Shown here: piece after piece, positions 33,831 to 35,114 of the stretch
Layout of the letters: every line of letters starts with the position of its first letter
Position numbering within the stretch: position 1 is the stretch's first letter
DNA from: Corynebacterium yonathiae
GTDB lineage: Bacteria > Actinomycetota > Actinomycetes > Mycobacteriales > Mycobacteriaceae
Reading direction: 5' to 3'
NCBI RefSeq assembly: GCF_027570195.1
Contig: NZ_JAKMUZ010000017.1
Coordinates: forward strand, 1-63,449
Length of the DNA stretch: 63,449 nt
Translations under genes and position numbers: made by a program
The notes under the pieces: model-generated
What the model was told of the DNA's origin: nothing
The model's database searches: none
The model's input: the letters and a program-made list of their open reading frames with translations, nothing else

Positions 33831-34108
33831 TCAAGGGAGAAAAGGCTTGCAGCCAAAGGCCGGTGGTGGGCCGGCAGCGTGGGCGGCGGTGAGGAAGCCA
33901 TCTACTTTGTCTCCTTCTTCATGGTGGAAGTACAGTTCGATGAGTCCTAGAAGCCCCCCCCGAGGACGGCCTCTCGTGCGGCGGATGTATTCAACAGCCG
34001 CATGGCTGCGGGTTGGTTTCCTTCGCGGATGGCTTCAAACAGCGCGATGGTCTCAAGCCAGCTTCCTTGGTCCGGTCGCGGAAAAGGTTTAGAAATCCCA
34101 GTCATCAT
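33831..34108 (-). pseudogene. Frameshifted small ORF downstream of nrdF
   Basis: From ATG 34108, which overlaps the end of nrdF, a frame reads MMTGISKPF and continues about 50 residues to a run of eight G (plus-strand C at 33954-33961), where it stops at once (AVLGGGF-stop). Adding one G restores an open frame that continues LLGLIELYFHHEEGDKVD and GFLTAAHAAGPPPAFG to a stop at 33831, for a total near 92 residues. The downstream part looks like real protein. This could be a true mutation, phase variation at the G-run, programmed slippage or a sequencing error. I recognise no family. Confidence 0.55.
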
Positions 34109-35114
34109 CACTCGTTTCTTCAGCAGTGCCAATGACATAGGAGGAACCAGATCCGGAGAAGAAGTCATGGTTCTCATCTGCTCCGGGGGCTAAGGCCGCG
34201 AGGATTTCTGGGTTCACTTCCGTTTCTTCGGGCGGGAAATAATCCGGGTAGCCCAAATTCATGAGTGCCTTATTGGCGTTATAGCGAACGAACACGGCTA
34301 CATCATCCATGAGTCCCAAAGGCTCATATAGCTCGCCGGAATAGTCCAGCTCTAGTGCATAAAGCTCTTCGAGCAAAGAAATGGTGAAATCATGCATCTC
34401 CTTCTGCCGTAGCGGGGTCGTGGATTCCAGACCGCGCTGATATTTGTAACCCGAGTAGTAGCCGTGCACTGCCTTGTCACGCAGAATGAGGCGGATCATG
34501 TCTGCCGTATTTGTCAGGGTGGCGTGGACAGAAAAGTGCAAGGGAAGATAGAAACCCGCGTAGAGAAGCAGCGAGGAAAGCAACGTCGATGACACCTTGC
34601 GTTTGAGTGGATCCGGCCCAAAATAGTGCGCGAGAACTTTCTTGGCGCGTGCCTGGAGAAGGTCGTTATTCACCGCCCAGCGGTATGCTTCATCAATTTC
34701 CTTTGTACTGCTCAGGGTAGAAAACACTGAAGAGTATGAACGGGCATGGACTGACTGCATGAAGGCGATGTTGGTATACACGGCCTCCTCGTGTTCGGTG
34801 CGGGCATCTTGAATCTGACAGATTTCACCCACGGTGGCCTGGACAGTATCCAGGGTGGTGAGTCCCGTGAACACCCGCATGGTGAGGTTGCGTTCCTCGG
34901 GTGTCATCTTCTGCCACGCCGGGAGATCATTAGAAAGCGGGACCTTCTCTGGCAACCAAAAGTTGGCGGTTAGACGGTTCCACACTTCAAGATCCTTGTC
35001 ATCGCTCACCCGGTTCCAATTGATGGCGCGGATGCGGGCTGAAGGATCATGCCGGTAGCTCGGCGGAGTAACTGAAATGCTGGTTAGTTCAGCACTATTC
35101 GATGTTGACGACAT
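34089..35114 (-). CDS. nrdF: Ribonucleotide reductase small subunit, class Ie (metal-free, QSK variant) NrdF
   Basis: This 341-residue R2 subunit has the NrdF frame throughout, ending with NADENHDFF-like and SGSGSSYVIG segments. Against class Ib NrdF the six metal-ligand positions are Asp89 (kept), Gln120 (normally Glu), His123 (kept), Ser180 (normally Glu), Lys214 (normally Glu) and His217 (kept). The radical tyrosine is Tyr127 in HARSYSS. Gln-Ser-Lys at the three Glu positions is the signature of class Ie R2, which binds no metal and uses a DOPA radical made with NrdI and oxygen. I use ATG 35114 (MSSTSNSAE), preceded by AGAAAGAAG; longer in-frame starts overlap nrdE. It is in one run with nrdI and nrdE. 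Confidence 0.93.
   Translation of the reverse strand: MSSTSNSAELTSISVTPPSYRHDPSARIRAINWNRVSDDKDLEVWNRLTANFWLPEKVPLSNDLPAWQKMTPEERNLTMRVFTGLTTLDTVQATVGEICQIQDARTEHEEAVYTNIAFMQSVHARSYSSVFSTLSSTKEIDEAYRWAVNNDLLQARAKKVLAHYFGPDPLKRKVSSTLLSSLLLYAGFYLPLHFSVHATLTNTADMIRLILRDKAVHGYYSGYKYQRGLESTTPLRQKEMHDFTISLLEELYALELDYSGELYEPLGLMDDVAVFVRYNANKALMNLGYPDYFPPEETEVNPEILAALAPGADENHDFFSGSGSSYVIGTAEETSDDDWDF

What the first reader, a model, noticed from the sequence alone, without database searches (positions are those of the whole stretch)
34089..35114. NrdF with Gln-Ser-Lys at three metal-ligand positions: a class Ie, metal-free ribonucleotide reductase in a Corynebacterium
Aligned to the class Ib NrdF of C. 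ammoniagenes from memory, ligands Asp77, Glu108, His111, Glu168, Glu202 and His205 fall on Asp89, Gln120, His123, Ser180, Lys214 and His217, with a constant offset of 12. The radical tyrosine falls on Tyr127. Three glutamates are therefore replaced by Q, S and K while the rest of the fold is intact. This is the QSK variant of the class Ie R2 described for metal-free, DOPA-radical ribonucleotide reduction. C. ammoniagenes is the textbook manganese enzyme, so a metal-free one in this genus is notable. A second, ordinary nrdHIEF set may exist elsewhere in the genome.
Basis: partly seen in the sequence, partly recalled or inferred. Interest (0 to 1): 0.95.

Follow-up and report, generated by a model that had tools for sequence, protein, structure and literature searches.

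The report
Manganese-switched, metal-free DNA-precursor enzyme cassette
This Corynebacterium carries a second complete set of genes for making DNA building blocks whose radical-generating subunit lacks three of the usual metal-binding residues and is therefore predicted to work without metal, and the set sits beside a manganese-sensor-like gene and paired DNA sites that would likely switch it on when manganese runs short.

Summary
NrdF at 34089-35114 (-) has D89, Q120, H123, Y127, S180, K214, H217 and groups with the characterised QSK class Ie R2 of Gardnerella, apart from class Ib. The genome also has an ordinary class Ib NrdF and NrdE. QSK R2e in Corynebacterium is already in print (PMC11846895), so the protein alone is a new member of a known kind.

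The surroundings add more: a cassette of MntR-like regulator, two perfect palindromes (AACTACG-N6-CGTAGTT), nrdI-nrdE-nrdF and an NADPH-FMN-reductase-family gene. Upstream of nrdI in 105 QSK loci (103 Corynebacterium genomes), AACTACG boxes (49 loci) occur only where an MntR paralogue is linked and AAGTTCA-N6-TGAACTT boxes (28) only where none is; 28 are unassigned. A C. diphtheriae-type genome has the second kind before a QSK nrdI-nrdF; published work lists C. diphtheriae nrdI-nrdF2 as MntR-regulated, without calling it class Ie in the paper I could search.

I infer a manganese-sparing switch: Mn-loaded repressor keeps the metal-free RNR off. The cassette has moved recently between species. 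Metal content, DOPA, DNA binding and the reductase's role are untested.

The parts
34089..35114 (-). nrdF: class Ie R2, QSK variant (D89 Q120 H123 Y127 S180 K214 H217)
35167..37401 (-). nrdE: catalytic R1 subunit; cysteines C208, C418, C445, C739, C742 and the YY pair at 722-723 are present (their catalytic roles recalled)
   Evidence: TIGR04170 1160.5 bits against a cut-off of 750; residues
37413..37850 (-). nrdI: flavodoxin-like activase (an in-frame ATG at 37880 is also possible)
   Evidence: TIGR00333 157.4 bits against 74.65
37910..37929 (.). palindrome 1, AACTACG-N6-CGTAGTT (class A box), likely operator
37932..37951 (.). palindrome 2, AACTACG-N6-CGTAGTT (class A box), 22 bp from the first
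37996..38676 (-). MntR-like regulator of the DtxR family (HTH, metal-binding/dimerisation and FeoA domains), likely repressor of nrdIEF
33210..33791 (-). NADPH-dependent FMN reductase family protein, proposed reductase of NrdI
   Evidence: PF03358 98.3 bits against 24; nearest PDB chain 3u7r, 77 bits
33850..34092 (-). approximate extent of a small conserved gene, frame-broken in this window at a run of C (33954-33961); intact copies exist in relatives
33096..38839 (.). whole cassette: the stretch shared by three other Corynebacterium genomes whose flanks do not match

Best explanation
The gene encodes the QSK-type R2 subunit of a class Ie ribonucleotide reductase, predicted to be metal-free, inside a cassette (MntR-like regulator, twin palindromes, nrdI, nrdE, nrdF, FMN-reductase-family gene) that has moved between species and would likely make DNA precursors when manganese is scarce. 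When Mn is plentiful, the Mn-loaded linked repressor is inferred to sit on the two AACTACG-N6-CGTAGTT boxes and block nrdIEF, while the separate class Ib enzyme of the same genome, presumed Mn-dependent, makes the DNA precursors. When Mn falls, the repressor would let go and nrdI, nrdE and nrdF would be expressed. Reduced NrdI plus O2 would then turn Tyr127 into DOPA and its radical, as others have shown for DOPA formation and activity of the Gardnerella QSK enzyme, and NrdE would reduce ribonucleotides. The downstream FMN-reductase-family protein is proposed to keep NrdI reduced. Shown here: residues, gene order, phylogeny, the two operator classes and their tie to the linked regulator, and the DNA pattern of recent transfer. 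Inferred: absence of metal, DOPA, Mn-dependent repression and the reductase's role.
For: QSK residues and clade. Intact nrdI and nrdE beside it. Regulator closest to solved chain 5zr4 (212 bits; next 8pvt 127, SloR 107, ScaR 100, IdeR 87, DtxR about 72), with Glu105 at the place of DtxR's cysteine ligand. Upstream of nrdI in 105 QSK loci, at 2 mismatches or fewer: class A box with linked regulator 49, without 0; class B box without 28, with 0; neither 28. By 46 clusters of 95% NrdF identity: 11, 0, 17, 0 and 18 unassigned (Fisher p 5e-8 on the assigned clusters); shuffles 0.0005 per region for each class. Class B is also the box between the own genome's second MntR gene and a ZnuA-family gene. 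The C. diphtheriae-type genome G039 has a QSK nrdI-nrdF with a perfect class B box, and PMC13001254 section 8 lists nrdI-nrdF2 (DIP1923-1924) with mntABCD as MntR-regulated. Among named loci a linked MntR-like gene is in 15 of 41 QSK and 0 of 39 class Ib loci, at least two parts of a Mn/Zn-type ABC transporter in 8 of 41 and 0 of 39, FMN_red in 19 of 41 and 0 of 39. Recent transfer: nine genomes with cassette genes 96-99.5% identical beside a tig end of 81-83%.
Against: No biochemistry was done. 28 of 105 Corynebacterium loci have no box of either class at 2 mismatches, 15 of them with a linked regulator. At 3 mismatches two class A calls appear without a linked regulator. I had seen the palindrome list before fixing the two consensus sequences; G039 is itself among the 105, and several loci are close kin of the window. 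18 of 41 named QSK loci (Streptomyces, Bifidobacterium, Gardnerella and others) have none of regulator, transporter or FMN_red. The regulator is below NCBIfam's MntR cut-off (155.5 against 350), and Asn12 stands where acidic or sulphur ligands are usual. The linked-versus-canonical split of the regulator tree has only 82/87 support, with long branches. The identity of G039 and of its nrdI-nrdF pair with DIP1923-1924 is inferred. The wt high-against-low-iron column of Table 3 in PMC13001254 is blank for nrdI-nrdF2, and the strong repression shown there is by iron in a dtxR mutant; the Mn experiments are in a paper I could not read.
Confidence: 0.72

Rival explanations
1. Class Ie RNR as above, but the linked DtxR-family protein senses mainly iron or another metal, or another factor uses the boxes, so the cassette answers to iron or general metal stress rather than to manganese.
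For: The regulator is below the MntR cut-off and has Asn where Mn-type family members often have an acidic ligand. One of the next PDB matches is labelled an iron-dependent repressor (8pvt). PMC13001254 suggests that iron can load MntR in a dtxR mutant. PMC8463856 reports repression of the S. pyogenes class Ie genes by Fe and Mn.
Against: Best PDB match far above IdeR and DtxR; Glu at the cysteine position; DtxR does not bind the nrdI promoter in C. diphtheriae; class B boxes, which replace class A where no regulator is linked, also lie beside the own genome's second MntR gene.
Confidence: 0.18
2. The FMN_red gene is a hitchhiker: a general quinone, chromate or azo reductase with no part in NrdI chemistry, the rest of the model standing.
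For: Its nearest solved relatives include chains named chromate reductase and azoreductase. It is absent from 42 of 105 Corynebacterium QSK loci and from Bifidobacterium and Gardnerella loci.
Against: Where present it is directly downstream of nrdF on the same strand in 62 of 63 loci, it occurs with QSK loci in nine genera, and it is in 0 of 20 class Ib loci of the same genus. QSK activity needs reduced NrdI (PMC11846895).
Confidence: 0.45
3. The protein is not a working metal-free R2 but a decayed or still metal-dependent class Ib relative.
For: Asp89, His123 and His217 remain, and a class Ib enzyme is present in the same genome, so loss would be tolerated.
Against: The protein is 97-100% identical over its whole length in the first 35 genomes of the list, with nrdI, nrdE and boxes kept. 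The Gardnerella QSK enzyme contained no iron or manganese and was active (PMC11846895 section 11).
Confidence: 0.04

Closest known systems
Class Ie R2, QSK variant: Gardnerella vaginalis (Bifidobacterium vaginale) NrdF, PDB 8rag/8rah, PMC11846895
   Same: The three substitutions, the kept D/H/H/Y, NrdI and NrdE in the operon, and the clade.
   Different: Gardnerella loci have nrdHIEF with NrdH and no linked MntR or FMN_red. The window has no NrdH but has a linked regulator, class A boxes and FMN_red, and a class Ib enzyme in the same genome.
nrdI-nrdF2 (DIP1923-1924) of Corynebacterium diphtheriae, MntR regulon (PMC13001254; Peng et al. 2021 not held)
   Same: The inferred counterpart in G039 is a QSK NrdF behind nrdI with an N6 palindrome.
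   Different: nrdIF without nrdE, class B box, no linked MntR paralogue in the fetched stretch. The window has its own paralogue and class A boxes.
Class Ie R2, VPK variant (Mesoplasma 6gp2, Aerococcus 6ebo, Streptococcus pyogenes)
   Same: Class Ie, NrdI-dependent; Fe/Mn repression is cited for S. pyogenes in PMC8463856.
   Different: Other substitutions (V, P, K) and gene order nrdFIE (PMC11846895); lower similarity to the window (419 and 404 bits against 519).
Class Ib NrdF of C. ammoniagenes (1kgn) and the own-genome class Ib NrdF (L002)
   Same: Overall sequence along the whole chain, constant offset of 12 to 1kgn; 62% identity to L002.
   Different: They keep the ligand glutamates (L002 DEHYEEH). 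The 20 Corynebacterium class Ib loci fetched lie in nrdH-nrdI-nrdE-nrdF order with no linked MntR or FMN_red.
MntR of M. tuberculosis (PDB 5zr4; that identity is recalled)
   Same: Best PDB match of the linked regulator over 213 residues.
   Different: Linked to a class Ie operon; its predicted box AACTACG-N6-CGTAGTT differs from the AAGTTCA-N6-TGAACTT box beside the genome's second MntR.

Membership tests
Class Ie R2, QSK variant | Gln, Ser and Lys at the three substituted ligand positions | tested here: met
   Q120, S180, K214
Class Ie R2, QSK variant | Remaining Asp, two His and the radical Tyr kept | tested here: met
   D89, H123, H217, Y127
Class Ie R2, QSK variant | Same clade as the characterised QSK enzyme, apart from class Ib | tested here: met
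   39 QSK rows, Gardnerella among them, on one side of a 100/100 branch; VPK proteins were not in the tree
Class Ie R2, QSK variant | NrdI and an intact NrdE encoded with it | tested here: met
Class Ie R2, QSK variant | No bound transition metal in the active protein | not testable with these tools
   needs purified protein
Class Ie R2, QSK variant | Tyr127 hydroxylated to DOPA, and activity only with it | not testable with these tools
   needs mass spectrometry, EPR and an assay
MntR (Mn-responsive DtxR-family repressor) | DtxR-family domains over Pfam cut-off | tested here: met
   PF02742 109.8, PF01325 58.3, PF04023 41.4 bits
MntR (Mn-responsive DtxR-family repressor) | NCBIfam MntR equivalog cut-off reached | tested here: not met
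   NF047407 155.5 bits against 350; I therefore call it MntR-like
MntR (Mn-responsive DtxR-family repressor) | Acidic ligands in place of DtxR's Met10 and Cys102 | tested here: inconclusive
   Glu105 at the Cys position, Asn12 at the Met position (DtxR numbering recalled)
MntR (Mn-responsive DtxR-family repressor) | Mn-dependent binding to its operator | not testable with these tools
   only the operator-regulator association was tested
NADPH-dependent FMN reductase family (PF03358) | Pfam domain over its cut-off | tested here: met
   98.3 bits against 24; reduction of NrdI not tested

The most novel reading that the evidence does not exclude
Corynebacteria and several other skin- and cheese-living actinobacteria carry a self-contained, freely moving manganese-independence cassette: a metal-free RNR whose own MntR paralogue has evolved a private operator (AACTACG instead of AAGTTCA), so that it is wired to manganese starvation wherever it lands, together with a dedicated flavin reductase that is the missing electron source for NrdI.
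Probability: 0.42. Interest if true: 0.78.

Novelty: new variant of a known kind. Interest (0 to 1): 0.62.

Why it matters
[quoted passage not shown] Two operator classes, each tied to the presence or absence of a linked MntR paralogue, give a concrete and quickly testable answer for Corynebacterium: manganese shortage. If right, one genome holds a metal-sparing ladder, a presumed Mn enzyme when Mn is there and a metal-free one when it is not. It would also join two literatures that I found unconnected, the MntR regulon of C. diphtheriae and class Ie enzymology, and it names a candidate reductase for NrdI, whose replenishment PMC11846895 could not provide in its QSK assays. The transfer pattern (nrdF 98-99% identical beside a tig end 81-83% identical) suggests recent selection for the cassette.

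Tried and rejected
Plasmid location: tblastn against 72,556 plasmid records gave no match of 80% identity or more (best 67%); residues of these matches were not checked, and no plasmid with this cassette was identified. NrdR boxes: NrdR-box-like repeats were seen by eye upstream of some non-Corynebacterium nrdI genes but were neither scored nor pursued. A hand-written weight matrix for the boxes is not used as evidence because I wrote it after seeing the boxes. Other RNR classes in the own genome: class II profile matches only below the cut-off, at the two nrdE genes; no class III. The small gene was modelled from intact relatives (four helices, mean pLDDT 81.4) and gave 28 PDB matches, none better than E 1.3; no Pfam family; in NCBIfam only a chance-level match in 2 of 10 members (E 0.037). 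The statement in PMC11846895 that 40 Corynebacterium species have QSK as sole RNR was not reproduced here: the 103 QSK genomes surveyed all have at least two NrdF matches, 20 of 20 fetched second copies were class Ib, and 20 of 20 fetched single-NrdF genomes, of 119 in my transcription, were class Ib. The survey came from a capped list (15 genomes with two or more NrdF matches, by that transcription, were not examined), and I cannot say why the numbers differ.

Papers seen: PMC11846895 abstract, sections 6 and 11, passages; PMC13001254 passages and section 8; PMC8463856 passages and section 8; PMC9936198 passages; others only as search listings. Peng et al. 2021 (PMC8459757), Srinivas 2018 (PMC6317698) and Blaesi 2018 (PMC6176560) are not held, so I cannot exclude that Peng et al. 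named nrdF2 as class Ie. A link between MntR and class Ie in Actinomycetota was not found in the searches.

Full report
WHAT IS THERE. The window gene 34089-35114 (-) is a full-length NrdF of 341 residues. D89, H123, Y127 and H217 are kept; the three other ligand positions hold Q120, S180 and K214. The protein aligns at a constant offset of 12 with C. ammoniagenes R2F (1kgn) and of 23 with the QSK R2 of Gardnerella, its best PDB match (8rag, 519 bits). Of 80 named loci fetched by similarity (the best 80 of 587 confirmed), 41 carry a QSK NrdF and 39 only a class Ib one. One search shows 43 DQHYSKH labels (41 loci plus the window twice) and 42 DEHYEEH (39 loci, two second copies, and the own-genome L002), with no intermediate. 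A maximum-likelihood tree of 81 distinct rows puts the 39 QSK rows on one side of a 100/100 branch. The window group (C. tuberculostearicum, C. minutissimum, C. phoceense, C. striatum; 100/99) is one branch of an unresolved fork that also holds Leucobacter, Brevibacterium, Micrococcus, Streptomyces and others. C. flavescens and C. amycolatum sit on another branch of that fork and C. halotolerans outside it. That points to transfer between families.

THE GENOME'S RNRs. The own genome has two NrdF and two NrdE: the window set and a class Ib set on contig 8. It has no class II enzyme over the cut-off and no class III. In the genus, 237 of 242 genomes have an NrdF match. From that capped list I picked and fetched 105 loci in 103 genomes by similarity; all 105 are DQHYSKH. 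All 103 genomes have at least two NrdF matches, and 20 of 20 fetched second copies are class Ib with nrdH, nrdI and nrdE nearby.

THE CASSETTE. On the minus strand the order is MntR-like regulator (37996-38676), twin palindromes, nrdI, nrdE, nrdF, a small gene broken here at a C run, and an FMN_red-family gene (33210-33791). It lies between tig and clpP, which are on the other strand. Three named Corynebacterium genomes (L010-L012) share only 33096-38839 of the tested 28001-41000, at 91% DNA identity. In nine genomes (L158-L165, L168) the five cassette genes are 96.3-99.5% identical to the window, while the neighbouring tig end is 81.4-83.3% and clpP1 90.0-92.0% identical. In 15 loci (L170-L184) the cassette genes are present (88-94%) but no tig is found in the fetched stretch. 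Cassette GC is 53.5% against 57.9% for the window. I read this as recent exchange of the cassette between species, partly at the same site.

THE REGULATOR. It has the DtxR-family domains. Its best solved relative is 5zr4 (212 bits), ahead of 8pvt (127), SloR (107), ScaR (100), IdeR (87) and DtxR (about 72); that 5zr4 is the M. tuberculosis MntR is recalled. Glu105 stands where the own DtxR has its cysteine and Asn12 where it has methionine. PMC9936198 (passage) notes that replacing DtxR's two sulphur ligands by acidic ones shifts it towards Mn. The protein is below NCBIfam's MntR cut-off. The own genome has two further family members: one 48% identical on contig 51, beside a divergent ZnuA-family gene, and DtxR. 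In a tree, 47 distinct linked regulators split from two canonical MntR and DtxR at 82/87; support is modest and branches are long.

THE OPERATORS. Twin AACTACG-N6-CGTAGTT palindromes (class A) lie at 37910-37929 and 37932-37951. They are the only exact sites in the genome; at two mismatches the reversed-pattern control is more frequent than the pattern, so weaker sites mean nothing. Between the contig-51 MntR gene and the ZnuA-family gene lies AAGTTCA-ATAGAT-TGAACTT (class B). A one-mismatch class B box lies near the start of an ABC-transporter ATPase gene on contig 4. In the 330 bp upstream of nrdI in the 105 loci, at 2 mismatches or fewer: class A with linked regulator 49, without 0; class B without 28, with 0; neither 28 (15 with, 13 without). 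In 46 clusters of 95% NrdF identity: 11, 0, 17, 0, and 18 unassigned. At 3 mismatches two class A calls appear without a linked regulator. Shuffled regions give 0.0005 per region for each class at 2 mismatches and about 0.01 at 3. 36 loci have two class A boxes, 22 or 23 bp apart. Cautions: the class A consensus is the window's and the class B consensus that of L089 and G039, but I had seen the palindrome list before running; G039 and close kin of the window are among the 105; and 'linked' means within about 6 kb. In the 20 class Ib control stretches, four matches at 2 mismatches or fewer occur; one, a class A box in L241, lies just upstream of the class Ib nrdF, the other three elsewhere.

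THE LINK TO MANGANESE. Genome G039 encodes a DtxR 100% identical to the PDB sequence of C. diphtheriae DtxR over 222 residues, so I take it for that species or a very near one. Its nrdI-nrdF pair is QSK with a perfect class B box, the only exact one in that genome (two-mismatch matches there are no more frequent than the control). A 3-mismatch version lies about 70 bp before the mntA-like gene. PMC13001254 (section 8) lists mntABCD and nrdI-nrdF2 (DIP1923-1924) as MntR-regulated and uses nrdI as a negative control for DtxR binding. Its text has no occurrence of class Ie, metal-free or class Ib. PMC9936198 presumes the C. diphtheriae RNR to be manganese-dependent. For the VPK branch, repression by Fe and Mn in S. 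pyogenes is cited in PMC8463856. In other genera the link is also physical: 8 of 41 QSK loci have at least two parts of a Mn/Zn-type ABC transporter, 0 of 39 class Ib loci do. In five Brevibacterium and Brachybacterium loci that operon is divergent from the QSK genes. The substrate-binding protein of the Leucobacter locus L014 matches MntC chains at 357 bits and the first chain labelled zinc-binding at 101.

THE FLAVIN REDUCTASE. An FMN_red gene is in 63 of 105 Corynebacterium QSK loci (21 of 46 clusters), directly downstream of nrdF on the same strand in 62 of the 63, and in 0 of 20 class Ib controls. Among named loci it is in 19 of 41 QSK loci over nine genera and in 0 of 39 class Ib loci at 150 bits, with two weaker Gordonia matches of 65-70 bits. 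NrdH is nearly the mirror image: 1 of 105 QSK stretches, and there it belongs to a neighbouring operon on the other strand, against 20 of 20 class Ib controls (54-70 bits). PMC11846895 says that QSK activity needs reduced NrdI and that no protocol to replenish it existed. That the FMN_red protein does this is my inference.

NOVELTY. A QSK NrdF in Corynebacterium is known (PMC11846895). New, as far as searches show, and with Peng et al. 2021 unread, are the two operator classes and their tie to a linked MntR paralogue, the recognition that the MntR-regulated nrdI-nrdF2 type is class Ie, the FMN_red partner, and the recent spread of the cassette. I therefore call it a new variant of a known kind.

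Noticed in passing
window 33850-34092 (-), run of C at 33954-33961; relatives L008, L009, L014, L016, L019, L131, L153 and others: A small gene (about 92-96 aa, no Pfam family) between nrdF and FMN_red is frame-broken at a homopolymer in the window and similarly cut short in L152 and L155, but reads through at full length in 33 of the 105 survey loci and in Leucobacter, Micrococcus and Gulosibacter. In Brevibacterium L018 and L020 a homologue lies on the divergent, transporter side. AlphaFold gives four helices with no convincing PDB match.
   Followed up: partly
genus survey: PMC11846895 names 40 Corynebacterium species with QSK as sole RNR; here the 103 surveyed QSK genomes all have a second NrdF match, and 20 of 20 sampled single-NrdF genomes are class Ib.
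   Followed up: partly
L241:7781-7800 (genome G180): A class A box with 2 mismatches lies about 180 bp upstream of the class Ib nrdF, so in that species the ordinary enzyme might share the regulator.
   Followed up: no
L259 (own genome C4:29676-29695): A one-mismatch class B box lies near the start of an ABC-transporter ATPase gene that reads like a Mn/Zn importer, with a transposase-like ORF (by eye) on its other side.
   Followed up: no
L010, L011, L012 (L012 about 10159-11751, - strand): Where the cassette lies away from tig, an ORF that reads by eye like a plasmid mobilisation (Mob/Pre) protein is found just beyond it in these three genomes; not tested against any library.
   Followed up: no
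L017, L018, L020, L023, L029: Degenerate relatives of the palindromes (TTCG-N6-CGAA type), in Brevibacterium in tandem 22 bp apart, lie between the divergent transporter operon and the QSK genes; seen by eye and with a matrix written afterwards.
   Followed up: partly
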